Origin: Rhizobium sp. WYJ-E13
GTDB lineage: Bacteria > Pseudomonadota > Alphaproteobacteria > Rhizobiales > Rhizobiaceae
Assembly: GCF_018987265.1 (NCBI RefSeq)
Contig: NZ_CP076853.1
Span: 310,001 to 374,000 of the forward strand
Direction: 5' to 3'
DNA length: 64,000 bases
Each line of letters opens with the position of its first letter. The first letter of the stretch is position 1. Made by a program: the position numbers and the translations under genes. The notes below the pieces were generated by a model. The model searched no databases. It was not told the DNA's origin and saw nothing but the letters and a program-made list of their open reading frames with translations. Positions 43,328-58,690 of the stretch are shown in pieces.

Positions 43328-43831
43328 TCATTTCAAAATCATTGCGCTTTTCAGTGCGGCATTTTCGGCCCTGATGCGGATCGTCAGAATGGCGGCATTG
43401 AGGAGCGAAAAGACCAGCGCATAAAGCGGCATGCCGAAGGCAAGCGGCAGGGCGGCGATCTCGCCTGTCACGATCATGTAGTTCGGATGTTTGAAGAAGC
43501 GGTAGGGGCCGTCTTCGACGAGCGGGGCGCCGGGAAGGATGATGATACGCGTCGTCCAGCGCGGCCCGAGCGTCATCAGCACCCATAGCCGCAACACTTG
43601 CAACAGCATGAAGAGACCGAACCAGAAGAGCTGGATCGGCTGTCCGGCGGCCAGCATCCAGAGCCCAACGAGCCAGCCCGTATGGAGCGCCACCATATAG
43701 GGATAATGATCGGGCGCGATTTCGCGCGCCCCTTTTGCAAAAAGCGCCATCGTGTTGCGGCGCGCGATCACCAGTTCGGAGAGCCGCTGGGCGGTCACGA
43801 AGGCGAGAAGAGCGATGGAGGGCCACATCAT
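43328..43831 (-). CDS. ICMT-type membrane methyltransferase (BpsB-like)
   Basis: Membrane protein of 167 residues with four or five predicted helices and the isoprenylcysteine-methyltransferase core DGPYRFFKHPNYMIVTGEI near 105-123, where SAM binds. It overlaps the type III polyketide synthase start by 4 bp. In Bacillus subtilis the equivalent pair BpsA-BpsB makes alkylpyrones and methylates them, so this protein probably O-methylates the neighbouring enzyme's product. True prenyl-Cys substrates are unlikely here. Confidence 0.85.
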   Translation of the reverse strand: MMWPSIALLAFVTAQRLSELVIARRNTMALFAKGAREIAPDHYPYMVALHTGWLVGLWMLAAGQPIQLFWFGLFMLLQVLRLWVLMTLGPRWTTRIIILPGAPLVEDGPYRFFKHPNYMIVTGEIAALPLAFGMPLYALVFSLLNAAILTIRIRAENAALKSAMILK

Positions 43832-44880
43832 GCGACCCTCCGCAATGTCACGCAGCTTGCTGTAAAGCCCGGACCCATGGCGATCATCGCCGCGCGGTCC
43901 GGCAGTCCTGCGCGGATGGCCCGCTCCAGAACGAAAAGCACTGTTGGCGAGGACATATTGCCATAATCTGCAAGCACCGACCTCTCGATGTCGAGTGTAT
44001 AAGGCGCCATGGAAAGCGTGCTCTCCATCGCCGCCAGTACCTTGGTGCCGCCGGGATGGCAGATGAAACGGTCGATATCGTTGCGCTCGAGCCCGCTGTG
44101 CGCCAGAATGCCGTCAATTGCCGGGCCAAGCTCCTTTTCCGCAAAGGGCGGCAGCCCCTGCGCCAGCAGGATGCCGAGCCCGGTATCGTCGATCTTCCAG
44201 CCCATGATGTCGAGCGTATCCGGAAACAGGTGATCGCCCGCCGATTCCACTTCTGCCATGCCGCCTTGGCCTGATCGCATCACACAGGCTGCAGCCCCGT
44301 CGCCGAAAAGTGCGGTAGCGATGATGTTCGGCTTGGTCAGCTCATCCAGCCGGAAGGCCAGCGTGCAGAGCTCGATGGCGACGAAGAGCACCACAGCGCC
44401 CGGACGGCTGCGCGCCAGCCGCGAAGCGATGCCGAAGCCGGAAACGCCTGCAGCGCACCCAAGCCCGAAGACGGGCACGCGCTCGATATCCGCGCGAAAC
44501 CCGAGCCGACCGGCAAGCCGCGCATCGATGCTCGGCGTGGTGATGCCGGTAGAGGAAACCGCAACGACGCAATCGACTTCACCAGCCGTCAGCCCGGCCT
44601 GCTCGAGCGCCCGGGTTGCCGTCTCGACAAACAGCGAACCGGCGACCTCCTCATAGGCCTTCATCCTGTCTTGCCAGCCATGCGTCTCTTCGAACCAGGA
44701 GAGGGGACGGGCGGCATGCCGCTTTCCGATACCGGCATTGTCGAACACGCGCGCGAGGTGGCGGAATTCCTTGAAGCGATCGGCAAAGAGGCGCGCGGAG
44801 GCCTCGGCGGCTTGGCTCTGGGTGATGATATGGTCAGGCACTGCAGTGGCGAGACTTAAAAGTCTGACGGATTGAGTCAC
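43828..44880 (-). CDS. Type III polyketide synthase (chalcone-synthase-like)
   Basis: Iterative condensing enzyme of 350 residues. The triad is complete: Cys142 in FGLGCAAGVSG, His275 in FICHPGGTKVL and Asn308 in ADYGNMSSPTVLF. It probably extends a fatty acyl starter with malonyl-CoA to an alkylpyrone or alkylresorcinol, by analogy with BpsA and ArsB-type enzymes; product length cannot be read here. The GTG at 44880 has an AAGGAG site; a start at 44922 would add 14 residues without one. Translationally coupled to the ICMT-like gene. Confidence 0.92.
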   Translation of the reverse strand: MTQSVRLLSLATAVPDHIITQSQAAEASARLFADRFKEFRHLARVFDNAGIGKRHAARPLSWFEETHGWQDRMKAYEEVAGSLFVETATRALEQAGLTAGEVDCVVAVSSTGITTPSIDARLAGRLGFRADIERVPVFGLGCAAGVSGFGIASRLARSRPGAVVLFVAIELCTLAFRLDELTKPNIIATALFGDGAAACVMRSGQGGMAEVESAGDHLFPDTLDIMGWKIDDTGLGILLAQGLPPFAEKELGPAIDGILAHSGLERNDIDRFICHPGGTKVLAAMESTLSMAPYTLDIERSVLADYGNMSSPTVLFVLERAIRAGLPDRAAMIAMGPGFTASCVTLRRVA

Positions 44881-45052
44881 GGTATGCTCCTTGTCGTTCC
44901 CGGCGGAACGAGTGGAAAACACGCGGGCGCGAAAGTTTATTCGGCGCCGCTCTTCACGAAGCAGTGATCAGAAAAAATGCGAAAGCCCGTCGAATAAAGC
45001 TGGAGGCAGCGGTGTTCACTCCTCGCAACGTCATTTTCTGAGGAGTTATCCC

Positions 45053-46306: not shown

Positions 46307-47097
46307 GCACGAAGCACATTATGCCCTCCGACGAGGAATTGACCGCCTTCATCGATGGTGAACTCGGCGCGGAAGAGACTGCCCGGATCGAGGCGATGAT
46401 CGAAGCCGATGGGGCTGTCGCCGAACGGCTGGAGTTTCTGGCGCGTGCAAGCCTGCCTTACAAGCAAGCCTTCGCGCCGCTGCTTGATGCCGCTCCGCAG
46501 GCAAAGCTCGAAGCCATGCTGTCGGCCATTCCCGCCGCCCGGTCTGCAAGACCGGCTGCCTTCATGAGCCGTCGAGGCTTTTTCGGCGCGCTTGCCGCTT
46601 CGGTCGTTGCCGGCATCGCCGTCGATCGCGCCATGATCGGTGTCGGTGCAAGTTTCTCGGGCAAGGATGAAAACAGCGAATGGCGCGCCGTCGTTGCCGA
46701 ATATATCTCGCTCTATACACCGGAGACGCTCGCCGGTCCCGTTCCGCCGAGAGATGTGCAGGCAGCGCAACTCGCCAGTCTGGATGGCGACCTCCGCCTG
46801 CAACTCTCGCCAGAGCAGGTCGCCCTGCCGGATATCGATTTCAAGCGCGCCCAGATCCTGCAATATGATGGCAAGCCGCTCGCACAGATCGCCTATCTGG
46901 ATCCCGAGACCGGCCCCATGGCGCTCTGCATCGTCGCCTCCGACGGCGGCCCCAAGGCCCCCGATATCGAAGGCCGCAAGGGCATGAATGTCGTCTACTG
47001 GGCAAACGCCACCCACGCCTTCATGCTGATCGGCCACGCCCCGGTCGACCGTATGACGGAGATCGCAGACGCGGTGCGGAGCAAGATTTCCGTTTAG
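46303..47097 (+). CDS. Membrane anti-sigma factor
   Basis: Regulator of 264 residues that probably holds the adjacent ECF sigma factor inactive. The cytoplasmic part (about 1-85) shows the zinc-finger-like anti-sigma pattern DEELTAFIDGELGAEETARI, without the His-x3-Cys-x2-Cys set. A single hydrophobic segment (about 92-113) is preceded by SRRGFF, a twin-arginine-like motif. The remaining 150 residues would be periplasmic. Its end overlaps a convergent gene by 4 bp. Confidence 0.85.
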   Translation: MSTKHIMPSDEELTAFIDGELGAEETARIEAMIEADGAVAERLEFLARASLPYKQAFAPLLDAAPQAKLEAMLSAIPAARSARPAAFMSRRGFFGALAASVVAGIAVDRAMIGVGASFSGKDENSEWRAVVAEYISLYTPETLAGPVPPRDVQAAQLASLDGDLRLQLSPEQVALPDIDFKRAQILQYDGKPLAQIAYLDPETGPMALCIVASDGGPKAPDIEGRKGMNVVYWANATHAFMLIGHAPVDRMTEIADAVRSKISV

Positions 47098-47651
47098 AAC
47101 GGCTGGGTCTTATCGGAAACCGGGCTGACCTGATTGGCAGGAACGAGGCGGTTCAGGCAATTGACATAGGTCGTATACATCTGCTGAAGCCGCGAGAGCG
47201 GCACCACCCAATGCCCTTCATTTCCGGCAAAATCCAGTTCCATATCCGGTGTGCCGACAAAGGAATTCTTGAGGATCTTCTTGATCTGCGCCACACCCGT
47301 CTTCTCGGCGGCTGGCAAGATGCGAAGCGTCTTGCCGTCGAAGAATTCGGCCGGTACGGCCTTGGTGCCGGAATAGCCGACGAGCGTTACCTTGGTCGTG
47401 GTACCCTCGGGGATCTCCCAGCCATCCTTCGAGACGAGCCACATGACGCTGTCGAGGCTCTGGCGGAATTCGACCGTCTTCCCGAGCTCATCGTTCCAGA
47501 TCAGCCGGCAGTAGGACGGCTTCTCGCCGACGAACCCGACCGACCACTGCCGCGCATCGCCCATCCATTCCGTCCCGCCAGGGGCCGTCTCGCTCCGTGA
47601 GGTTGCCGGAATGAGGAGTGCCGTCAGCAACAGGGCAGAAAAGGTCTTCAT
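47094..47651 (-). CDS. Exported protein of unknown function
   Basis: Predicted periplasmic protein of 185 residues. The signal peptide (MKTFSALLLTALLIPATSRS) is followed by a beta-rich part (QWSVGFVGEKPSYCRLIWND, FRQSLDSVMWLVSKDGWEIP) and a C-terminal helix (LSRLQQMYTTYVNCLNRLV). Two cysteines could form a disulfide. No family recognised. The start is uncertain: ATG 47651 is used; a TTG at 47669 or ATG at 47663 is in frame. Convergent with the anti-sigma gene, overlapping 4 bp. Confidence 0.65.
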   Translation of the reverse strand: MKTFSALLLTALLIPATSRSETAPGGTEWMGDARQWSVGFVGEKPSYCRLIWNDELGKTVEFRQSLDSVMWLVSKDGWEIPEGTTTKVTLVGYSGTKAVPAEFFDGKTLRILPAAEKTGVAQIKKILKNSFVGTPDMELDFAGNEGHWVVPLSRLQQMYTTYVNCLNRLVPANQVSPVSDKTQPF

Positions 47652-47739
47652 GGCTCGAATCATCTCCAAGGAGCTGAGGTGATTCTAGCGGCGGAAGATT
47701 GAAGTTTTGCTACCACGGCGGGTCAAAGCCATGTTCATT

Positions 47740-50700
47740 TCATCGTGCAACCCTCTGGATCGGCGAAGAAGATCGCAGGGAACGAAGGAATTCTTCGGCA
47801 TCGACAGTTTCCAGAGCGCCGGCGACGTCCCTGAAATACGGCATGGCTTCCCAAAAGTTCCGGTCCGCAACGATATGAAAACGCCGCTGGGCGCGGGTTA
47901 GAGCTACGTTCAGCAGATTGAGCTTTGATGAAGCCCAGGCGGCTGCGCCGGCGTGTGCCTTGTCGGCGCCAAGGATCATGAAGACCGTGTCTCTTTCCTT
48001 GCCCTGAAAGGTATGAACAGTCCCGACCCTGTCTTTCAGCCACTTCTTCAGTTGCGGAGGCGATGTACGAGGAGAGCCGGTGTCATTGACCCATCGGGCC
48101 TTTTTCAGCGCCGTCTTCAGCGCATTCTTGATCTCCTTGAATGGAGAAATGACATAAAGATCGGGCAGTGCTCCGTCCCGGCGGTAAGTCGCGACCAGGA
48201 CATCGACGATGAATTCGATCTGTTCGGGAACGCGCTGCCGGCCGGAAACCTTGCCCCCAACGTCGATCCAGACGCTGTCGCCATAAAATGGCGGAGCATC
48301 GTCGGCCGGCCATCGTTCCTTCAATCCGAATACCATCTTGTCCCGATAGGCGATCCGGTTGGCGAGTGAGAACATCGGGTCGATGCAGCGGCGGTGCACA
48401 CGCAGCGGACTGCCGATCCAAAGTCCATTGCCATCTTCCGACGGCAGCGCCGTTCCATAGCAGTTTGCTGCGTCGGCGAGCCCCTGTACTGAAACGCGGT
48501 TGGGCGAATAACTCTCCGCGGAGGTGTATGGCGACAGGCGACTGAGGGCCCTTATGAGCGCGCCGGGCAGGGTAAAAACCGGCTCGATCTGCAAGGGGTC
48601 GCCGATCGCCATCAGGCGGCGTGCCCGCATCAGGGCGCCGACGGCTGCCTGCGGCACGGCCTGACCGGCCTCATCGACGAAAACCCAGCCGATCGACGCC
48701 GGTCCGAGCCCTGCGAACTGACGAGCGAAAGAGGCAAACGTCGTCGAAACGACGGGAACGATCATGAAGAGGCTCTGCCATATGGGTGGGATATCCGCCC
48801 CGTCGTCAGGAGCATTTCCGGAGAGCAGCTTCGTGATGGCGACGATGTTTCCGCCAAAACCTCCGCTCGGCCTGCTGACTTCCGCCAGCCATGCCTCATG
48901 CAGCGTCAGCGCCGTCTCCAGCAAGGCGGAGCGCAGGCCAGCCAGCCTGTCGGAGTGCCAAAGCCCTTCGATCTGAAAACGGTCGGTTTCGAGATCGTCA
49001 ATGTTTGCGGGCAGTGCCGGCCCGTCCAATCTCTGCCGCAGCTCTTCGAACCTTGCGGACTTCTCGGACCAGGTTTCCTGTCTCGCATGCAGTTCCCGTT
49101 CGGCCTGCTCCCGGTGCCGAAGAGCCTTCTCCAGGGAAAGCCGGTACCTTCCCGCAAGATCTCGTTCGCAGTTGGCGAGCGTCTTGCGGAGGGCGATTTG
49201 CTCCCGGGCATTCGATTTCACATTGTCCCTGTGCCGTTGGTTTTCACTGTTCGGCAGCATCCTTTTCCACCAGACCGGCGTCGAACGGTCGAGAAGCCGC
49301 TCCTCTTCCCTGAGCCGGTCCAATTCGGTACGGACGGCGAGGGTTTCGGCCTCGGCCGCTGCATACCGATCCCGAGCCAACCCAACTGCCGTCTCTGCTG
49401 TCTCCAGTGCCTCACGCGCCAGGGCACAGAAAGCGTCGAATGAGGTCAAGGCAATTTCGCCGTATAGATCGGCGAAATGCCCGTATTCGTCGATCATGGA
49501 GCGAACCGCTTCGTCGGCATTGCGAAATCGCTCGCCTGCCTCGGCGAATGTTGGCCCGCCGTAGCTGTCTCGCCATTCCCAGATCGTCTGAGGCCTGTCG
49601 AGACCGGACCAGTCGGGCTTCGCCCTATCTTCCCTGGCCTTGTCTTCCTTTGCCGGCATGAAGGCGAAGCGCTCCTTGAATGCGCGCCGGTTCCCGCTTT
49701 TTCCGAGTGCACAGGCGATCAATCCCCACGGGCGGTTTTCATCCGTCAGCGCGGTGAAGCTGCCATTGTCTTTTTGCGCGGCGATCTTGTGGGCAACGGT
49801 CTGCAAATAGCCGAATGTCTTGCCTTTCGTAATCGAGCTTTGCTTGGGAAGGTCGCGCGAGATATTCTCGACGGCAGCGTTGTTGGACGAGGCGACGACC
49901 ATCTCGAAGCCGGTGAGGCTGGCGTTCAGGCTCGATATCCACGCGGTGCTGCCGTCCTTGAAATTGACCTTTCTCGATGCGCCGTCGAAGGCATCCCGCG
50001 CGGTTCTCAAGGCGGCGAGCACCCGCGCCCGCCGGACGATATTGTCCGCAAAGATATCACGCAGCAGTGTCGTCTTGCCGGTGCCCGGTGGGCCGTTGAC
50101 CGAAAAGAGCCCGGTTTCCGAGAGGGTTTCCAAGGCGGTATTGATCGCGAATTGCTGCATCAGGCTCATGGCATGATGGGCTTCTGCCAGCCAGCGCCCG
50201 GCATTGAGGTTTCGCGGATGCAGTGACCGGATGAGGGCGCGGCGGCCTGTTTCCGTATAAAGGTCGATCCGCGCGTTGGAAGCGAGCGGCGTCAAATATT
50301 GTCGCAGCGGCTCGGGAATCGTGCCGCTGCGAATGCAGTCCATGGCCTTTTCGATGTCCTCGATGAAGAAGCTGTTCAGAATCCCGATTTCCTGTTCGGG
50401 AGTACCATCTTCCTCGTCATCGTCGTCACCCGCCGCGTTATGCTGAAGCGGCGCAGGCAGGAGCTTTGCCGTCGGCCTCGACGGCTTGTCCCTGTAGCGG
50501 ATTTCAACGAGAGCGACAGGCCTGTCTGCATCAGGCGCGAAGCCTGCCCAGTCGCAAAGCAAGGCATGAAGGGCGCGAATTTCAGCAGGCGTGAGCGGCT
50601 GGTCGTCGGTATCCTCAGATTTTTGATGGTGCAGACGTCGCTGGGCTTGGAAATTTCCCAGCAATTCCTGCAGGCGCTGTCTGCCATCGGCAAATGCTTC

Positions 50701-51156
50701 CGAGCTCAGCGCGGCAAGGCCACGTTTCCGGACTTGCCCAAGCGCCCAGGGAAGCGTCGAGATGGAAAACGCCGTAAAAATCGGATTGCCGTGAGCGTCG
50801 AGTTCCAGGCTTGCAAAGCAGGTATCGCCATCCAGATCGCCGCGCTCTGCATCCTCGAATTCCGTCATGCCGTTGGTGGCGCTGGCGAAATTCCTGCTGA
50901 CCTTGGAGATCTCCGATTTGCTGAAAACGCCGAGGAAAAGGGTAAGTCCGGTGATCTCCTTGTGCTCGGGGACAATTGGACGCTTCACGGCGTCGCTGTC
51001 ATCCTCAAGTGTTTCGGCATGCAACCAAAGAGCCTTCTTGTTTTCGTCTTCCGTTGCCCGCTTGGAAAGGTCGTACGGGATGAAGAACTCGATCTTGTGC
51101 CAGAGGTCGAGGATTGCCAGCAGCCGCTCGCGTTCGTTACCTGTAGGGATCTGCAT
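47740..51156 (-). CDS. Large SF1 (UPF1/COG1112-like) helicase
   Basis: Stand-alone helicase of 1138 residues. The N-terminal 350 residues have no recognised domain and include an acidic stretch (GDDDDEEDGTPEQE). Walker A GPPGTGKTTLLRDIF lies near 355. A charged, Arg/Glu-rich coiled-coil-like insertion spans about 560-720. Walker B WVFVDEAGQAVPQAA lies near 825, with GDPLQIEPV after it and motifs VGTVHTFQGKERDTVF and LLNVALTRAQRRFHIV near the end. No nuclease domain is seen. The layout resembles helicases in defence islands, but no partner gene is present. ATG 51156 is preferred; TTG 51198 is possible. Confidence 0.85.
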   Translation of the reverse strand: MQIPTGNERERLLAILDLWHKIEFFIPYDLSKRATEDENKKALWLHAETLEDDSDAVKRPIVPEHKEITGLTLFLGVFSKSEISKVSRNFASATNGMTEFEDAERGDLDGDTCFASLELDAHGNPIFTAFSISTLPWALGQVRKRGLAALSSEAFADGRQRLQELLGNFQAQRRLHHQKSEDTDDQPLTPAEIRALHALLCDWAGFAPDADRPVALVEIRYRDKPSRPTAKLLPAPLQHNAAGDDDDEEDGTPEQEIGILNSFFIEDIEKAMDCIRSGTIPEPLRQYLTPLASNARIDLYTETGRRALIRSLHPRNLNAGRWLAEAHHAMSLMQQFAINTALETLSETGLFSVNGPPGTGKTTLLRDIFADNIVRRARVLAALRTARDAFDGASRKVNFKDGSTAWISSLNASLTGFEMVVASSNNAAVENISRDLPKQSSITKGKTFGYLQTVAHKIAAQKDNGSFTALTDENRPWGLIACALGKSGNRRAFKERFAFMPAKEDKAREDRAKPDWSGLDRPQTIWEWRDSYGGPTFAEAGERFRNADEAVRSMIDEYGHFADLYGEIALTSFDAFCALAREALETAETAVGLARDRYAAAEAETLAVRTELDRLREEERLLDRSTPVWWKRMLPNSENQRHRDNVKSNAREQIALRKTLANCERDLAGRYRLSLEKALRHREQAERELHARQETWSEKSARFEELRQRLDGPALPANIDDLETDRFQIEGLWHSDRLAGLRSALLETALTLHEAWLAEVSRPSGGFGGNIVAITKLLSGNAPDDGADIPPIWQSLFMIVPVVSTTFASFARQFAGLGPASIGWVFVDEAGQAVPQAAVGALMRARRLMAIGDPLQIEPVFTLPGALIRALSRLSPYTSAESYSPNRVSVQGLADAANCYGTALPSEDGNGLWIGSPLRVHRRCIDPMFSLANRIAYRDKMVFGLKERWPADDAPPFYGDSVWIDVGGKVSGRQRVPEQIEFIVDVLVATYRRDGALPDLYVISPFKEIKNALKTALKKARWVNDTGSPRTSPPQLKKWLKDRVGTVHTFQGKERDTVFMILGADKAHAGAAAWASSKLNLLNVALTRAQRRFHIVADRNFWEAMPYFRDVAGALETVDAEEFLRSLRSSSPIQRVAR

Positions 51157-51322
51157 GGCGTTTCTCGGTACAGATAAATTCGCTGAATGTTCTATCAACG
51201 ATCACCTGTTCGGGAAACCCGGTGCCGGAAACTCGGTCTACCCCGGGACCCTTCGGTGCCTCTGGATTGGCATGTTCGCGGCGATGTGGGCGGCAAGCCT
51301 TTCGCGGCCGACCGGCAGAATT

Positions 51323-51588
51323 GCTTACGGTGCTTACGATTGCTTACACACATTTTGTAAGCGAGTTTCCGTAATGATTTCAGTGATTTATTGTTTCGCT
51401 TACGGACTTACAAAGATAATGGTGAAACTCAGCTGGAGAGACAGCGGGCATTTCAAGGGGCTGTGGGCTATGCCCATGAGAGTTTGAGACAGGCCGTAAT
51501 TTCGTAAGTTTGTAAGCGTGGTCGTTAAGGTTGTGATTTTGTTATGTAATCACGCTTACGAAATTTGCCGGCGAATGGCAGCGCTTAC
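51323..51588. repeat. Array of eight GCTTAC motifs in direct and inverted order
   Basis: GCTTAC starts at 51323, 51332, 51342, 51398, 51554 and 51583; its complement GTAAGC starts at 51357 and 51512. The first three are 9 and 10 bp apart. GCTTACA/TGTAAGC (51342-51362) form a hairpin. ATTTCGTAAG (51499-51508) and GTAAGCGTG (51512-51520) are mirrored by CACGCTTAC (51551-51559) and CTTACGAAAT (51555-51564). The array lies upstream of the helicase gene in DNA that looks AT-richer than its surroundings. It could be an operator cluster, iterons or a recombination site. The rest of 51199-51891 shows no convincing gene. Confidence 0.75.
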
Positions 51589-51787
51589 AATTTTCGGGCA
51601 TCACGCCGATGACGCCCAGCGGCTTGCGGATGATCTCGGCGCCGATATCAGGACGAACGGCCATTACCAGCGCCTCACGACGATTGACGTCAGGCGCGCT
51701 CCAATCGCTGTCGATGGGCGGGGCGATTACCGAAACGGCCGACCGATCGTCGATTTTCCCTCTGTTTTTCCGATCGCGAGCGACCAT
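51542..51787 (-). CDS. Possible small or remnant protein, 81 aa
   Basis: A frame of 81 residues starting MVARDRKNRGKIDDRSAVSV, with an AAAGGTGG ribosome site 5 bases upstream. The segment EIIRKPLGVIGVMP is followed by a CKRCH motif. No family recognised with confidence. Its 3' end overlaps the GCTTAC array, and overlapping frames exist upstream, so it may be a remnant rather than a working gene. Confidence 0.25.
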   Translation of the reverse strand: MVARDRKNRGKIDDRSAVSVIAPPIDSDWSAPDVNRREALVMAVRPDIGAEIIRKPLGVIGVMPENCKRCHSPANFVSVIT

Positions 51788-51891
51788 GGATGCCACCTTT
51801 GTGCTCTGGCTTTGGGTCCCAGTCAACAGGGGCGAAGCGGCAGTTATTTCCGCGAAATGTCTCCTTCAATTCGTCCGCCATCTCAGGGCCA

Positions 51892-52872
51892 TCAGCAGGC
51901 AGCATTCTTTCGGCTGCGCATGTCGCGCTTATCATCGGCGAAGACGCCACATCCTGTTCCGCCTGGCTGGCCGTGCCACAGGAAGAGTACGGAGAGGCCC
52001 AGCTTTTCCGCTAATTTCAGTCCTTCCTGTTCGCCAAGAACCATCATCGCCGTCGCCCAGGCATCGGCACTCATGCAATCGCGAGCGATTACTGTGGCCG
52101 AGGCGGGCGGTTTTCTGAGCGGCATGCCGAGACGCGGATCTATGGTGTGGGAGAGCCGGTGTCCGCCGATATCCACCCAGTGGCGGTAATCCCCGGACGT
52201 CGCGATGGCTGAATCCTCGAGCTCGATGATGGAATGCGGCGCGCGTTCGTGAAGATCGGGTTTCTCGACCGCAATCGCCCAGCCCGAGCCGTCCGGCTGC
52301 GCGCCGAGTGCGCGCAGCTCGCCGTCGATAGCGAAGAGGCCCGCTTCGATGCTGTGCAGACCTGCGGTTTCCGCCAGCCGATCGACACCGTAGCCCTTGG
52401 CGATGCCGTTAAGGTCGAAGCGCATGTCGGCATGCTTTCGTGCTCTCCCATTGGCGGGATCAAGCTCAAGGATGTCATGAGCCGAGTTGCGGCGTGCGAG
52501 GCGGGCAGCCCTTATTGCCGCCTCGTCGGCTTCCACAGCACCGAAACCCCAGGCGGCGACGGCGTCGCCCACACCGATGTCAAAGGCTCCGCACGAGGCT
52601 TCGCCGATGGCAAGGCCTGCCTGGAGCACCTTCATCAGTTGTTCAGGAAGGACGATCCATTCGCCGGGACAGGCGGCGTTCAGGCGATTGAGATCGCTTT
52701 GGGGCTTCCATGTGGACATCTGCTGATCGACCTCTGCGACGGCGTCCGCCATGGCGGCGTGGACCCTCACGGTTTCGAAATCGCCTCGCATGTGGAAGAG
52801 CGCGGACCAGCGTGTGCCCATGGTGGGACCGTTCAGGGCATGGCGGGTGAGATCAGTAAACGTCTTCGGCAT
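51892..52872 (-). CDS. ApbE-family FAD:protein FMN transferase
   Basis: Attaches FMN covalently to Thr or Ser of extracytoplasmic proteins, using FAD and a metal ion. The 326 residues show GPTMGTRWSA near 15, the substrate block DLNGIAKGYGVDRLAE near 153, SGDYRHWVDIGGHRLSHTID near 226 and the metal-site end SADAWATAMMVLG near 268. No clear signal peptide is seen, which is unusual for periplasmic ApbE. The gene overlaps the upstream flavoreductase by 20 bp and ends the operon. GAGGG precedes the ATG. Confidence 0.9.
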   Translation of the reverse strand: MPKTFTDLTRHALNGPTMGTRWSALFHMRGDFETVRVHAAMADAVAEVDQQMSTWKPQSDLNRLNAACPGEWIVLPEQLMKVLQAGLAIGEASCGAFDIGVGDAVAAWGFGAVEADEAAIRAARLARRNSAHDILELDPANGRARKHADMRFDLNGIAKGYGVDRLAETAGLHSIEAGLFAIDGELRALGAQPDGSGWAIAVEKPDLHERAPHSIIELEDSAIATSGDYRHWVDIGGHRLSHTIDPRLGMPLRKPPASATVIARDCMSADAWATAMMVLGEQEGLKLAEKLGLSVLFLWHGQPGGTGCGVFADDKRDMRSRKNAAC

Positions 52873-55051
52873 AGCGGCCCTCTAACTTGAGTGTCGCAAG
52901 ACTCACGCCCTGCGGCATGAGAATGTCGGAGAGAGCGGCGGCCACGCCCGCCGCCATGTCACGGCCGCCGCAGACGAGGATCTGGCTGCCTGCCGCGATG
53001 AGTTTGCCGATCCTGGCGGCATCCTCGCGCAGGATGTCCTGGACATAGGCCGGGTTTGCCGTTCGCGAGAAAGCTGTGGAGACGCCGGCCAGTCGACCGT
53101 CCTCCTTCCAGTCCGACAATTCCTCCGCATAGAGTGCGTCGCTCTCCGGATGGCGGGTCCCGAAATAGAGATACATGGGTTGGTGCGCCTTATTCGCGCG
53201 GGCGAATCCCGCAAGGGGGCCGATGCCGGTGCCCGCGCCGATCAGGATGACGGGCTTGCCGCTGTGGGCAGGCCGGAAGCGCGGATTGGAGCGAACGAAG
53301 GCCGTCACCGTTTGTCCGGGTTCGAGAGCCGTGAGCTGCCCGGAGCAGAGCCCGCCCGGTTGCTTGCGGACGCAGATTTCGACGAACCCGTCCTTCGTGC
53401 TCGAAGCGAGCGAATAGAAGCGCGGCACTTGCGAACCTTCGGGCAATATGCCGACCAGGTCGCCCGCTTCGAACTGCGGAAATGCGTTTCCGGTCAGACG
53501 CTGCCAGAAAGACATCTTCGGCAGGGCGAAGCGCAGGATCACAGTCGTGGCCTGAACGCTTGCGCCATAGTCGCGGCGCGAGATCAGTGAAAGCTCCCAG
53601 GTCTTCGGTCTGGTCGGCAGGTGGTTGAGTTCGAAGGCGAGCCCGAGCGTCTCCGCCAGATCACGACCCCAGCGGGCAAAGTCCTGCGGCGACTGGCGAT
53701 CCACGGTGTCGTACGGCAGCAGCGCAACCCAGCCCCTTTCTTCCGCCAGCCGTGCGACGTCAGCGGCGAAACCGCAATAGGCGGGGAAGCTGCGGTCGCC
53801 GAAGCCGAGCACGGCAAGCGAAGGACCCCGCTTTACAGGAGTGCGCCGGAAGCGTTCCAGAAAGCCTTGCGCGGATGCCGGGGCTTCGCCGTCGCCATAG
53901 GTCGCGGCAAGCAGGATGAGCCGTTGCGCCATGGGCCAACGTGCGGGGTCGAAGCCGGACATCGGACCGACATGGACACGCATGCCCTGTTCGCAGAGCG
54001 ATTTTCTCAGGGTCTCGGCAAAGCCCCAGGTCGTGCCGCCCTCGCTGCCGACAAGGACGATGATGTCAGCCTCGCCTGCGGGAACAGAACGCCCCTTCTT
54101 CACGCCACGACCCCTGAACCAGACGGCGAGGCCGGTCCAGCTCATGACGGGAACGGCAAGTGCGGAAACACCGAGAAACAGGCCGAGCCATGCGATGCCC
54201 CGACCAGTGTGCAGCATGGTGAGGAAGTCCGTCAGGCGGTCGACCCAGTTTGAAGCCTTCCAAGCGAGCAGGTCGCCGTTGCCCTGGTCGATGTAGCCCT
54301 GGCCAGCGTCCGTCTTGAGGGTAAACGCGTCGGTTGCATCTGCGGCAGCCGGAAAGCTGAGCGAGCGAAGTGTGTCGACCGGGGTCTCCTGCAGAACGGT
54401 TATGGAGGCGACCTGGACGCCCGTAGCGCCGCTGACCTCCGAGGGGAAGGGCGGGACGCCGGCACCTTCGGGCAAAATGTCGTACGTTGCGGCGGTCATC
54501 CAGAGCGCGGTCAGCGACGACAGAAGTAGGCCGGGCAAGGCAAGGCGCGAGATGACAGCATGAAGGCGTACATCGCCCGTGCCTTTTGCAGGCTTCAGGA
54601 TGGAGCGCCAGCCGCCCGCTCGGCGCGCCAGCAGGAAAAGACCGGAGAGGGTCAACGCCAGCATGGCGCCCGCGCCGCCGGCGGCGATGAGGCGGCCGCT
54701 GTCGTCGAGGAGCAGCGAACGATGAAGATTGGTGAGCCAACGCTCGACGGCCGACGTGTCAGCGCTGCCGACGGGCGTGCCCGTTGCCGGATCGATGATG
54801 GAAGATGCGGGCTGGTCGCCCTCGAAATAGTATGCCGTAATCCGGCCGGACGGCGCGCGCCTGATCTGCTCCACCGAGGGTTCCGCCGACTGGATCCGTG
54901 CCGCGAGTTCCGCGACACTGATGTCCTGTGCCACAGGGATGGTGAGCCCCTCGGAGGCCGGGAAGACCGAGAGGGCTGTACCGCTCAGGGCGATGACGGT
55001 GAGAAGCGCAGCGGCGATCAGCCCAAACCAGCGGTGGAGCGACCGGATCAT
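52853..55051 (-). CDS. PepSY membrane protein fused to flavodoxin and ferredoxin-reductase domains
   Basis: Predicted transmembrane electron carrier of 732 residues. The first 330 hold PepSY-type segments and about four helices (LHRWFGLIAAALLTVIALSG and onward). A flavodoxin domain covers about 330-475 (LVGSEGGTTWGFAETL, AATYGDGEAPASAQGF). A sulfite-reductase-like FAD/NADPH module covers about 490-725 (PRFYSLASSTKDG; GAGTGIGPLAGF; QILVCGGRDMAAGV). It should pass electrons from NADPH in the cytoplasm to an acceptor outside. It is followed by ApbE and preceded by DUF2271, matching known flavinylation clusters. Confidence 0.9.
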   Translation of the reverse strand: MIRSLHRWFGLIAAALLTVIALSGTALSVFPASEGLTIPVAQDISVAELAARIQSAEPSVEQIRRAPSGRITAYYFEGDQPASSIIDPATGTPVGSADTSAVERWLTNLHRSLLLDDSGRLIAAGGAGAMLALTLSGLFLLARRAGGWRSILKPAKGTGDVRLHAVISRLALPGLLLSSLTALWMTAATYDILPEGAGVPPFPSEVSGATGVQVASITVLQETPVDTLRSLSFPAAADATDAFTLKTDAGQGYIDQGNGDLLAWKASNWVDRLTDFLTMLHTGRGIAWLGLFLGVSALAVPVMSWTGLAVWFRGRGVKKGRSVPAGEADIIVLVGSEGGTTWGFAETLRKSLCEQGMRVHVGPMSGFDPARWPMAQRLILLAATYGDGEAPASAQGFLERFRRTPVKRGPSLAVLGFGDRSFPAYCGFAADVARLAEERGWVALLPYDTVDRQSPQDFARWGRDLAETLGLAFELNHLPTRPKTWELSLISRRDYGASVQATTVILRFALPKMSFWQRLTGNAFPQFEAGDLVGILPEGSQVPRFYSLASSTKDGFVEICVRKQPGGLCSGQLTALEPGQTVTAFVRSNPRFRPAHSGKPVILIGAGTGIGPLAGFARANKAHQPMYLYFGTRHPESDALYAEELSDWKEDGRLAGVSTAFSRTANPAYVQDILREDAARIGKLIAAGSQILVCGGRDMAAGVAAALSDILMPQGVSLATLKLEGRYAEDVY

Positions 55052-55069
55052 GGTAATTTTCCTTGGTGA

Positions 55070-55546
55070 TCAACGTGCATAGGTGAAGTCGGCGATGTAG
55101 CGGCTACCCGTGGCCGCCTGGCCGGAGCCGGCAGAGGTGAGCGGTACGACGATTTCGTTGGGGCTGTCGCGCATGTCTTCGACGGCCGAGTCGATGTGCA
55201 GCTCATAACCGGCATCAAAAAGGGTATCGGCAAGGTCGAGTGTGATCTTGAGCGAGCGGCCGGAACCGACGCTGGCCCCGGTAATGCCGTTGATTTCGCC
55301 GGTGTCGCCACCTGTGGCCCGATACCAGCCGCTCAGATGCTCGTAGTAGCGCGCCTTGCCGCCCGCCATCCACAGACTGCCGACATATTTGCCCTGCGCA
55401 TCGGTCACGTAATAGGCAAGATAGGCTCCATCTCCACCATAGTTGCGCAGGTTGGTGGTGAAGGTCACTTCGCTTGCGAGTGCAAGACCGGGCACCGTCA
55501 GTGCCGTCGTGACGGCCAGCATGGCCAAGAAGGACTTCATCCTCAT
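55070..55546 (-). CDS. DUF2271 periplasmic protein, probable flavinylation substrate
   Basis: Exported protein of 158 residues. Signal peptide about 1-25 (LAMLAVTTALTVPGLALA). The DUF2271 core starts VTFTTNLRNYGGDGAYLAYY. Residues 86-92, NGITGAS, resemble the flavin-attachment pattern of ApbE substrates, where the last Ser/Thr carries FMN, so Ser92 is the candidate site. AAGGAG precedes the ATG. It sits 18 bp before the PepSY-flavoreductase gene. Confidence 0.85.
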   Translation of the reverse strand: MRMKSFLAMLAVTTALTVPGLALASEVTFTTNLRNYGGDGAYLAYYVTDAQGKYVGSLWMAGGKARYYEHLSGWYRATGGDTGEINGITGASVGSGRSLKITLDLADTLFDAGYELHIDSAVEDMRDSPNEIVVPLTSAGSGQAATGSRYIADFTYAR

Positions 55547-55570
55547 TGTTCATCTCCTTTTCTGGTGCGG

Positions 55571-55918
55571 TCAGTTCATCTGGGCGCGCGGCTTGCTGCC
55601 GGGCGTGAACAGGCTGTTGGTCGGGGGCGATCCGTTCTGTGGCATGGGGCCATTGCGATCGCCGCACCCACCGCGGCCATCATCGTCGTCGTCATCGTCG
55701 CCTTGCCCGCCACAGCCGTTAGCAGCGTAGCGGCCATCCTCGTCGCCACGACGGTGATGTCCTTCGCGATGGCCTTTGCCCTCATGTTCGCGGTAATTTG
55801 CCTTCACGATATCGGTGCCACCGAGCTTCGGGGGATCGAGCGGTAAGGCCATACTGGCGAAGGCGGCGAGAATGCCGGTGCCGGCAACCGCGGTGAGAAG
55901 AAGCTTGCGGTGTTTCAT
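55571..55918 (-). CDS. Exported Asp- and His-rich small protein, 115 aa
   Basis: Protein of 115 residues with a signal peptide (MKHRKLLLTAVAGTGILAAF), a His-rich patch (EHEGKGHREGHHRRGDE), a Gly/Asp tract of seven Asp near residue 76, and a Pro-rich tail. Two cysteines flank the Asp tract. The composition suggests metal or cation binding in the periplasm, but no family is recognised. AAAGGAGA precedes the ATG. It is 24 bp before DUF2271 in the same operon. Confidence 0.75.
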   Translation of the reverse strand: MKHRKLLLTAVAGTGILAAFASMALPLDPPKLGGTDIVKANYREHEGKGHREGHHRRGDEDGRYAANGCGGQGDDDDDDDGRGGCGDRNGPMPQNGSPPTNSLFTPGSKPRAQMN

Positions 55919-55967
55919 GGGTGTGTCTCCTTTGGGATTGGCAAGAGGGGATTGGCGAGGGTGAGGA

Positions 55968-56246
55968 TCACCGATGGTTGTGGTGTTCCTCGATTTCGAT
56001 GACATCGAGTGTCACGGGGTCGATCTTCGCTTCGAAGCGACGTCCGGTTTCATCCGTCCCGTAGACTTCGTAGCAACCGTCATCGATCTTGATGCGTCTC
56101 AGCCTCCAGCCGCGCTCCTCGGCAAGCGCGCGAACCGCCTCGCGCCCTTTCCAGTCACGGATCGGAGCGTTGCAGTCTTCCTCTGCCTGGGCAGATGTTA
56201 CCGCCATGATCACAAGGGCCAGGGTTGGCAGGATGCCGGTCTTCAT
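55968..56246 (-). CDS. Small periplasmic PepSY-domain protein, 92 aa
   Basis: Exported protein of 92 residues. The signal peptide (TGILPTLALVIMAVTSAQA) is followed by one PepSY unit: VRALAEERGWRLRRIKIDDG, then YEVYGTDETGRRFEAKIDP and VTLDVIEIEEHHNHR. Small PepSY proteins are common next to OmpR/QseC-type pairs and may modulate the sensor or a redox partner. GAGAGGAAA precedes the ATG at 56246. First gene of the minus-strand redox operon, divergent from the response regulator. Confidence 0.85.
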   Translation of the reverse strand: MKTGILPTLALVIMAVTSAQAEEDCNAPIRDWKGREAVRALAEERGWRLRRIKIDDGCYEVYGTDETGRRFEAKIDPVTLDVIEIEEHHNHR

Positions 56247-56325
56247 CAATCGTTTCCTCTCGTCGTCGGACCGTAAACTCATGCCGCAGACTGACCTCCA
56301 CCTGACAGATGCAGAGACTTTGCTT

Positions 56326-56342
56326 CAGCTTCCCGTAAGCTG
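56326..56342. promoter_or_regulatory. Inverted repeat in the divergent redox/two-component promoter
   Basis: CAGCTT-CCCGT-AAGCTG lies 37 bp before the response-regulator ATG and 80 bp from the small PepSY start. It is a candidate site for the encoded OmpR-type regulator. Confidence 0.4.
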
Positions 56343-56378
56343 GCGGGTGGACTACAGAAGAGGGCAAAGGGAGAAATC

Positions 56379-57034
<656 letters not shown>

Positions 57035-57038
<4 letters not shown>

Positions 57039-58408
57039 AGATCAACAAGGTGATGTCTTCGCTTCAGGCGCGGCTGGCAATCGCGGTCGGCGTTTCCGTA
57101 ACCATCCTGTGGCTCGCGGCCGCCGTCGCCACCGCGCACCGCCTCGGACGAGAGCTGGAGCAGGTCTATGACGACGGGCTGAAAGCCACTGCGGAGCGTA
57201 TCCTGCCGATCGCTCGGCATGACCTGCGCGAGGGAAATCCGAGACGTGAACGAGCCGATGATGATGAGGACGAAGACGACGTCCGCCGTGAAGCGCGGCC
57301 TGTACGCGAGGCTCGCTATGGTGAGGATGTCACGTTTATTCTGCGTGATAAACAAGGCGGCGTGCTGCTGAGTTCGAAGGGAGCGGACGTCGCGATCTTC
57401 CCTCCGTTCGAGAAGACGGGGTTTTCCCGCACCGACACGCATCGGCTCTATTATGCGACAAGCGCCGACGGAAATCTGGTCATCGCCGTGGCCGAACCGC
57501 TGGATCACCGCCAGGAGCTGTCGAACAAGATGCTGCTCGGTCTGTTGTTGCCGCTGCTGGTTGTCATTCCGCTGAGCCTTGTGGTGATTGCGTTCGCGGT
57601 CCGGTATTCGCTGCGTCCGGTCCGCGCTCTTCAGCAGGGGCTTTCCCATCGCGGCGCGCAGGATCTATCACCTTTGCCGGACAGCGGCTTGCCGAGTGAA
57701 CTCCGGCCGATTTCCGCGGGGATCAATCAGCTTCTCGGCCGCCTCACGGCCGCGTTCGACGCGGAGCGGGCCTTTGCCGCACACGCGGCGCATGAACTCC
57801 GCACGCCTGTTGCCGGTGCGATTGCACAGGCGCAACGTATCCGCTCCGAGACGAAGGAAGAACTGACTGCACAGCGCACAAATGAGATCGAGACGACGCT
57901 CAAGCGGCTGATGCGCATGTCGGAAAAGCTGATGCAACTCGCCCGCGCCGAAGGCGCGCGGCTGCGCGCCGACGAACCGTCCGATCTGAGGACGGTCCTG
58001 CTCATGATTGTCCAGGATTTCGAACGCACCGGAGAGCGGAAAGTTGAACTAACCATGCCGGAAAAGCCAGTCTATTCGCCGCTCGACCCTGATGCGGTCG
58101 GAATTCTCTCCCGCAATCTCATCGAAAACGCGTTGAAGCACGGGGCACAAGGCAGCCCAGTCGAGGTGGCTCTTGATACTGAAGGGGTTCTTTGTGTTGC
58201 CAACGAGGGGGCGACGCTGCCGCCAGAGGCGATGGACCGTCTGATGCGCCAGTTCGAGCGAGGCAACGTCAAGATTGGCGGATCGGGTCTTGGACTCGCC
58301 ATCGTCAAGGCGATCGCAGACCGTGTCGGAGCCGCTGTAGAAGTCGTGTCTCCTCGTTCCGGGAGGAGTGAAGGGGTCGAGGTGCGCGTACGCTTGCCTA
58401 TCACGTAG
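57035..58408 (+). CDS. Sensor histidine kinase with acidic periplasmic patch
   Basis: QseC/PmrB-like inner-membrane kinase of 457 residues. Helices lie at about 14-34 and 168-190. The periplasmic loop contains a run RADDDEDEDDVRRE (about 74-87), suited to binding cations. HAMP-like region, then the phospho-acceptor His253 in AHAAHELRTPVAGAIAQAQ, N-box NLIENALKHG, and G2 GSGLGLAIVKAIADRVG. Translationally coupled to the response regulator. The Asp-rich exported protein in the divergent operon has a comparable patch. Confidence 0.92.
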
Positions 58409-58616: not shown

Positions 58617-58690
58617 TGGCTGGGGAACCTGGATTCGAACCAAGATCGACGGAGTCAGAGTCCGCTGTTCTACCATTGAACTATTCCCCA
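58617..58690 (-). tRNA. tRNA-Gln (anticodon CTG)
   Basis: A 74-nt cloverleaf on the minus strand beginning TGGGGAATAGTTCAATGG and ending GTTCCCCAGCCA with encoded CCA. The anticodon stem GCGGA/TCCGT encloses CTCTGAC, giving CTG. The T loop is TTCGAAT. Its 3' end faces the accessory region. Confidence 0.95.

What the first reader, a model, noticed from the sequence alone, without database searches (positions are those of the whole stretch)
51323..51588. Dense GCTTAC motif array upstream of a lone helicase
Eight exact GCTTAC hexamers (six forward, two reverse) lie in 266 bp, where chance would give far fewer than one. Three are 9-10 bp apart in tandem, two form a hairpin, and a nested mirror of ATTTCGTAAG/CTTACGAAAT with GTAAGCGTG/CACGCTTAC spans 51499-51564. 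The array lies upstream of the 1138-aa helicase gene and in a stretch without a solid gene. It may be an operator cluster controlling the helicase, replication iterons of a lost element, or a recombination target. The unit does not match any rhizobial repeat I know.
Basis: seen in the sequence. Interest (0 to 1): 0.72.

Follow-up and report, generated by a model that had tools for sequence, protein, structure and literature searches.

The report
Orphaned satellite replication-origin repeat array
The dense repeat cluster is most likely the replication-start site of a virus-satellite-like element, left on a Rhizobium chromosome without the gene that recognises it, and its repeats still change together as if a protein made elsewhere in the cell kept reading them.

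Summary
The array is real and is the densest hexamer cluster scanned in the window. It is one of three copies of a ~290-bp noncoding element in this Rhizobium genome. In five relatives a copy directly follows a vapE gene (PF05272, a SaPI-Rep-like AAA+ helicase). The window copy keeps only a ~30-bp stub of a vapE 3' end, inside a tRNA-Gln integration hotspot. Among VapE loci from several phyla, 42 of 79 have an over-represented 7-mer at the stop codon, against 1 of 80 inside the gene and 1 of 80 upstream. Control of the helicase is not: intact helicase orthologs at the same locus in two relatives lack the array.

What is unusual: orphan arrays occur for two VapE families; the iterons of an array can switch together (GCTTAC to GATTAC; ACCTCCTCC to ACCCCGTCC), and the residues separating the two VapE types lie in the C-terminus; and iterons of orphan arrays vary less than their spacers, although at locus I vapE was already truncated before four lineages split. 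That hints at reading in trans. No binding or replication was measured.

The parts
51305..51600 (+). Orphan VapE-class iteron array, ten sites (51323 +, 51332 +, 51342 +, 51357 -, 51398 +, 51406 +, 51504 -, 51512 -, 51554 +, 51583 +)
51272..51301 (+). Stub of a vapE 3' end (frame reads VRGDVGGKPF)
   Evidence: 90% over 30 bp to the vapE of G033, E 1.3e-5; weaker to GATTAC-type vapE genes
58617..58690 (-). tRNA-Gln(CTG), right border of the integration hotspot (locus I)
   Evidence: empty sites and integrase-bearing islands beside the same tRNA in relatives
47094..47669 (-). 191-aa gene, left border of the hotspot
   Evidence: Orthologs at locus I in the 12 relatives compared
47740..51198 (-). 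AAA_11/AAA_12 helicase (1152-codon ORF), a separate occupant of the hotspot

Best explanation
The array is the cis part, the iteron set of a replication origin, of a replicon whose initiator is a VapE-type AAA+ helicase related to the Rep of staphylococcal pathogenicity islands. In the complete unit the vapE gene is followed directly by the array; the C-terminal part of VapE reads each GCTTAC, helicase rings assemble on the two iteron groups and open the DNA. In the window the unit stands in a tRNA-Gln integration hotspot; its initiator gene is gone except for a short 3' stub, so this copy is an orphan origin. Shown by sequence: homology to vapE-linked arrays, the stub, the hotspot with empty sites, the general vapE-array linkage, concerted motif change and the matching C-terminal differences of VapE. 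Inferred from SaPI Rep and not tested: binding, ring loading, origin activity, and that this copy no longer replicates by itself.
For: Three copies in the own genome, 21 matches in 10 of 148 genus genomes. Array directly after the vapE stop in G187, G033, G158, G014 and G175 (broken gene). vapE stub beside the window copy. Over-represented 7-mer at the vapE stop in 42 of 79 loci vs 1 of 80 and 1 of 80 controls; 33 of the 41 with five or more copies are outside Rhizobium. VapE profile matches PDB 7PDS over 421 of 430 positions. Published: ori immediately 3' of rep with two iteron sets (PMC6092414, passages and section 11); SaPI Rep reads it with its C-terminal domain (PMC7581432, passages). Eleven of 448 columns separate VapEs with GCTTAC from GATTAC arrays, all at residues 417-460.
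Against: 37 of 79 VapE loci did not reach the strict level, and of 30 genus VapE loci 12 reached 0/300. In the own genome and in G130 no array stands at the vapE stop; the nearest is 1.8 kb away in the own genome. The stretch between the two iteron groups is not the most AT-rich part (50% GC vs 39% and 44% in the groups). No integrase gene and no copy of the tRNA end in the window. Only two intact GATTAC VapEs entered the column count. The C2 copy has no tRNA and no vapE stub beside it, so how it got there is unexplained.
Confidence: 0.87

Rival explanations
1. Addition to the best explanation: orphan arrays are kept as chromosomal binding sites for a VapE made elsewhere in the cell, as decoys that titrate or handcuff the initiator (self-limitation, or incompatibility towards incoming relatives).
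For: Hexamer columns vary less than the rest in orphan arrays: locus II 3/60 vs 43/202, locus I GCTTAC 6/60 vs 48/203, locus I GATTAC 7/60 vs 59/203; mask shifts as low 0, 4 and 0 of 267. The vapE stub junction is shared by G000, G059, G178 and G158, and both motif types occur among these four, so the switch came after vapE was lost in cis. The own and most relatives' vapE is intact and under purifying selection. A lambda origin fragment in trans silences lambda replication (PMC3349717, abstract).
Against: G187 has a GCTTAC-type VapE but a GATTAC orphan; G178 has an orphan array but only a VapE stub; G130 has VapE-2-type orphans but no VapE-2 hit. By hand count 9 of 11 orphans match the resident VapE type, which is not more than the common type predicts. 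L012 and L014, used in the locus I tests, do not show the shared junction. No binding data.
Confidence: 0.35
2. Within the best explanation: orphan arrays are inert fossils of decayed insertions.
For: vapE stub, hotspot, broken vapE genes in G175 and G059; orphans without a fitting VapE (above).
Against: Hexamers more conserved than spacers and concerted switching after loss of vapE in cis.
Confidence: 0.5
3. Operator cluster controlling the helicase.
For: Position upstream of the helicase; remnants show that both shared the island earlier in G059, G178 and G130.
Against: Two of three intact helicases at this locus lack the array. Copies at other loci stand by vapE or between convergent genes.
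Confidence: 0.03
4. A small mobile repeat or a structured RNA gene rather than protein-binding sites.
For: The strand folds better than shuffles (z -3.1, 2 of 200 as good; z -0.2 to -12.7 over 23 arrays). Sites 4-9, 5-8 and 6-7 pair fully. One to three copies per genome.
Against: No Rfam family; one sub-threshold match at E 0.85. Sites 1, 2, 3 and 10 do not pair site to site, yet site 10 switches too in L012, L013 and L009, and different pairs need not change to the same letter. One VapE array is nearly one-directional (L120, 12 of 14). No target duplication or terminal repeat seen where filled and empty sites were aligned.
Confidence: 0.05

Closest known systems
Replication origins of PICIs / SaPIs (rep-ori module; solved VapE-family chain PDB 7PDS)
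   Same: VapE-family helicase gene followed at once by an array of short iterons in two groups; C-terminal reading published for SaPI Rep (PMC6092414, PMC7581432, passages)
   Different: Window copy has no initiator gene and no integrase; orphan copies sit at several chromosomal loci; central stretch not the most AT-rich. That 7PDS is SaPI5 Rep is my recollection; the call names it 'Similar to D. nodosus vapE'.
PLE RepA and its origin, Vibrio cholerae (PMC8263062, passages)
   Same: The DNA-binding part of the initiator co-varies with its origin; iterons are read by the initiator
   Different: Different initiator family; co-variation there by domain swapping and block replacement, here by the same base changing at many sites; no orphan origins described in the passages seen
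SCCmec Cch2 and its putative origin (PMC7581432, passages)
   Same: Rep-like helicase whose isolated C-terminal domain binds repeats downstream of its operon
   Different: Complete mobile element with recombinase; three iterons
Lambda origin fragment causing replicative inhibition (PMC3349717, abstract)
   Same: An origin fragment in trans silences replication of the related phage
   Different: Plasmid experiment that needs the oop RNA; not a natural chromosomal orphan origin

Membership tests
PICI / SaPI rep-ori module | Iteron array immediately 3' of the initiator gene | tested here: met
   Met by copies in G187, G033, G158, G014, G175; the window copy itself has only a vapE stub
PICI / SaPI rep-ori module | Initiator is a Rep/VapE-type AAA+ helicase | tested here: met
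   PF05272 at 1e-64, 7PDS at 8e-41 and 1.4e-123 with a profile; the gene is elsewhere in the own genome
[quoted passage not shown]
   Two groups, 51323-51411 and 51504-51588; the 92 bp between are 50% GC, below the window mean of 60% but above both groups
PICI (whole element) | Integrase and attachment sites | tested here: not met
   Six Phage_integrase matches in the own genome, none in the window; no exact repeat of 12 or more bases of the tRNA 3' half in the window. Relatives' islands at this tRNA have integrases
PICI (whole element) | Phage-dependent induction, replication and packaging | not testable with these tools
   Needs experiments
Helicase operator | Array beside orthologous helicases | tested here: not met
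   Present at one of three intact orthologs at locus I
Rfam RNA families | Match above the curated threshold | tested here: not met
   51200-51800 searched; one match far below threshold, E 0.85

The most novel reading that the evidence does not exclude
Rhizobium chromosomes carry a dispersed set of orphan origin arrays that are read in trans by resident VapE initiators under selection. The set of sites is retuned by concerted substitution when the initiator's specificity shifts, and the orphans act as decoys or incompatibility sites against satellites with the same initiator.
Probability: 0.3. Interest if true: 0.8.

Novelty: new variant of a known kind. Interest (0 to 1): 0.58.

Why it matters
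If right, it identifies a class of intergenic repeats as orphan origins of satellite-type replicons. It offers natural allelic series (GCTTAC/GATTAC; ACCTCCTCC/ACCCCGTCC) paired with a short VapE segment, which makes origin recognition by VapE/Rep helicases directly testable. It raises the possibility that bacteria keep copies of a parasite's origin as a brake or defence. And the simple rule 'look just past the vapE stop' predicts candidate origins for many uncharacterised VapE elements.

Tried and rejected
Rejected: helicase operator (two array-free orthologs). An aldehyde-dehydrogenase remnant right of the array: my first impression from a translated stretch, no domain found. Sites of the neighbouring OmpR-type regulator (56379-57038): a different two-component pair lies near locus II (L004:10737-12781), but I saw none in the ORFs of L005 (5-14.5 kb) or L013; not checked at every copy. 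Known RNA family. Relatives of the array DNA in the plasmid or phage collections: none. A high-copy repeat: 1-3 copies per genome; a motif-pair pattern in the own genome has 10 hits, nine in the three arrays and one at C2:18487, while the reversed control pattern has 22, so the pair is not enriched genome-wide.

Led nowhere: structure prediction of VapE. Literature: ('VapE', 'helicase', 'phage satellite') found no paper; the listings (10, 12 and 10 titles of 12, 175 and 94 papers) show none on VapE origins or orphan origins in rhizobia by title; one search did not bring up a paper on 7PDS. The library lacks most subscription journals, so I do not claim that none exists.

Weak spots: only two intact GATTAC VapEs entered; a broken third (L042, pieces read apart) and an IMG/VR contig (L196) agree by eye. 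For VapE-2 the ten positions unique to the ACCCC-type protein are spread, five of ten in the last 30 of 350 columns. In one search two of the 11 scored columns are not true sites and one true site is missing. The 80 loci are the best 80 of 124 and include 12 close Rhizobium relatives; one was too short. In one search the GATTAC arrays scored weakly (2, 39 and 28 of 300 shuffles as high), and L041 2 of 300. I first took tRNA genes to adjoin all loci: at locus III a tRNA-Arg is 4-10 kb away in four of six stretches, at loci II and IV none was found.

Full report
WHAT IS THERE. The window lies in a Rhizobium-type genome (G000; its near relatives found by VapE are Rhizobium species and unnamed Rhizobiales). 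Eight exact GCTTAC lie in 51323-51588; two near-sites make ten. The DNA from about 51305 to 51600 recurs twice in this genome, at C2:1358976 (82%) and C1:2854102 (74%). In the genus 10 of 148 genomes, the own included, have a match, 21 matches in all, two of them partial. Of 40 genomes from other families of the order none has one. The plasmid and phage collections have none.

WHERE THE COPIES SIT. By flanking similarity the 21 matches fall into five loci. Locus I (window; seven genomes) is the 3' side of tRNA-Gln(CTG). Locus II (three genomes) lies between the 3' ends of an IclR-type regulator and a methyltransferase (own genome). Locus III (nine genomes) is the vapE locus; a tRNA-Arg(CCG) is 4-10 kb away in four of six fetched stretches. 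Loci IV and V have one genome each; V is 0.3 kb from tRNA-Thr. Empty sites exist: at locus I G168, G027 and G175 have ~64 bp where G178 has ~760 bp, and at locus II G159 lacks 443 bp. I saw no target duplication. At locus I G159 and G172 carry inserts of ~24 and ~16 kb, each with a DUF6538/Phage_integrase gene close to the tRNA. So locus I is an integrase-type tRNA hotspot.

THE LINK TO VapE. The left outer flank of locus I and III copies is the 3' end of a VapE-like gene (PF05272). In G187, G033, G158, G014 and G175 the array follows the vapE stop; in G175 the gene is broken. The own genome has two VapE genes. One, C1:2856176-2857561, belongs to locus III, with its array 1.8 kb away. The other, VapE-2 at C1:136 kb, is 40% identical in the core and carries a DnaG-type zinc ribbon. 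The window has only a stub, 51272-51301, 90% identical over 30 bp to the vapE of G033.

A GENERAL RULE. For 80 VapE loci from several phyla (the best 80 of 124) I asked whether one 7-mer is over-represented in the 650 bp at the stop codon, against dinucleotide shuffles. It is in 42 of 79 (0 of 100 shuffles as high), against 1 of 80 for an equal stretch inside the gene and 1 of 80 upstream. Of the 41 with at least five copies, 33 are outside the Rhizobium genomes. Motifs differ from locus to locus. This is the published SaPI/PICI anatomy (PMC6092414; PMC7581432; passages). The VapE profile matches the solved chain 7PDS at E 1.4e-123 over positions 1-421 of 430.

CONCERTED MOTIF CHANGE. Of 23 arrays tabulated, 17 carry mainly GCTTAC; L012, L013 and L009 (orphans) and L035, L040 and L042 (vapE-linked) carry GATTAC or close variants at most sites. 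Between the window copy and L012, 8 of 11 scored motif positions differ against 31 of 299 elsewhere (p 4e-6); with L013 7 of 11 against 37 of 298, with L009 8 of 11 against 64 of 300. With L014 or L002 none of 11 differ although 18-22% of other positions do. Replacement of whole arrays would have changed the spacers too. In VapE, 11 of 448 columns separate the six GCTTAC proteins from the two intact GATTAC proteins, all at residues 417-460 and ten at 417-439. The tail of broken L042, read apart, and an IMG/VR contig with a GATTAC array show the same C-terminal type by eye. The second family does likewise: orthologous VapE-2 arrays carry ACCTCC-type repeats in six genomes but ACCCCGTCC in the own genome, though there the protein differences are less focused.

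ORPHANS. VapE-2-type arrays away from a VapE-2 gene occur in G130, G158, G033 and G059 (seven copies); a copy in G178 lies at a contig end and cannot be judged. For the first family the own orphans are the window and C2 copies. At locus I the stub junction (LDWH before VRGD or its variant) is shared by G000, G059, G178 and G158, so vapE was truncated there before these lineages split; both motif types occur among the four. Hexamer columns vary less than the rest: locus II 3/60 vs 43/202, locus I GCTTAC 6/60 vs 48/203, locus I GATTAC 7/60 vs 59/203 (mask shifts as low 0, 4 and 0 of 267). The last two tests include L014 and L012, which do not show the junction. These facts point to a reader in trans. 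Against it stand G187 (GCTTAC VapE, GATTAC orphan), G178 (orphan, VapE only as a stub) and G130 (VapE-2-type orphans, no VapE-2 hit). vapE is under purifying selection: dN/dS 0.19-0.36 over 21 pairs, VapE-2 0.15-0.32 over 15 pairs.

THE HELICASE. It is another occupant of the hotspot. Orthologs stand at locus I in G159 (95%) and G014 (83%) with no motif-like site in the 438 and 301 bp examined upstream. Remnants beside arrays in G059, G178 and G130, and one in G172 where no array was found, show that helicase and array once shared the island; each persists without the other.

MECHANISM AND NOVELTY. I commit to an orphan VapE-class origin array (0.87 for identity). C-terminal reading of iterons, ring loading on two groups and opening are inferred from SaPI Rep. 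Whether orphans are fossils (0.5) or read in trans (0.35) is open. The array also folds as a long imperfect hairpin (z -3.1): sites 4-9, 5-8 and 6-7 pair, which fits head-to-head iterons; pairing does not explain the switch of site 10. The kind is known; the orphan state, its recurrence in two families and the concerted retuning are the new aspects, as far as reach. The nearest precedent for co-variation is PLE RepA and its origin (PMC8263062, passages).

Noticed in passing
51892-58408: Cargo between array and tRNA-Gln: ApbE, PepSY_TM-flavodoxin reductase, DUF2271, an unassigned ORF, PepSY_2, and a divergent OmpR-type regulator with a histidine kinase. In G178 and G187 the array lies about 200 bp from the tRNA, so this block is absent there.
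   Followed up: partly
G159:C2:680899-704580 and G172:C85:29089-44945: Large islands in the same tRNA-Gln hotspot; G159 carries the helicase, an HNH protein, Mob_Pre, RelA_SpoT and an integrase; G172 carries two cytosine methylases, an EcoRII-C protein and an integrase.
   Followed up: partly
G000:C1:136197-137580 (outside the window): VapE-2: CHC2 zinc ribbon fused to VapE domain, followed by its own ACCCCGTCC array; orthologs in relatives have ACCTCC-type arrays.
   Followed up: partly
43828-44922: Type III polyketide synthase-like gene, minus strand.
   Followed up: no
L004:9625-9776: Between the IclR gene and the C2 array of the own genome and G187 lies a further ~150-bp insert absent from G130; it resembles a rhizobial intergenic repeat by my recollection only.
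   Followed up: no
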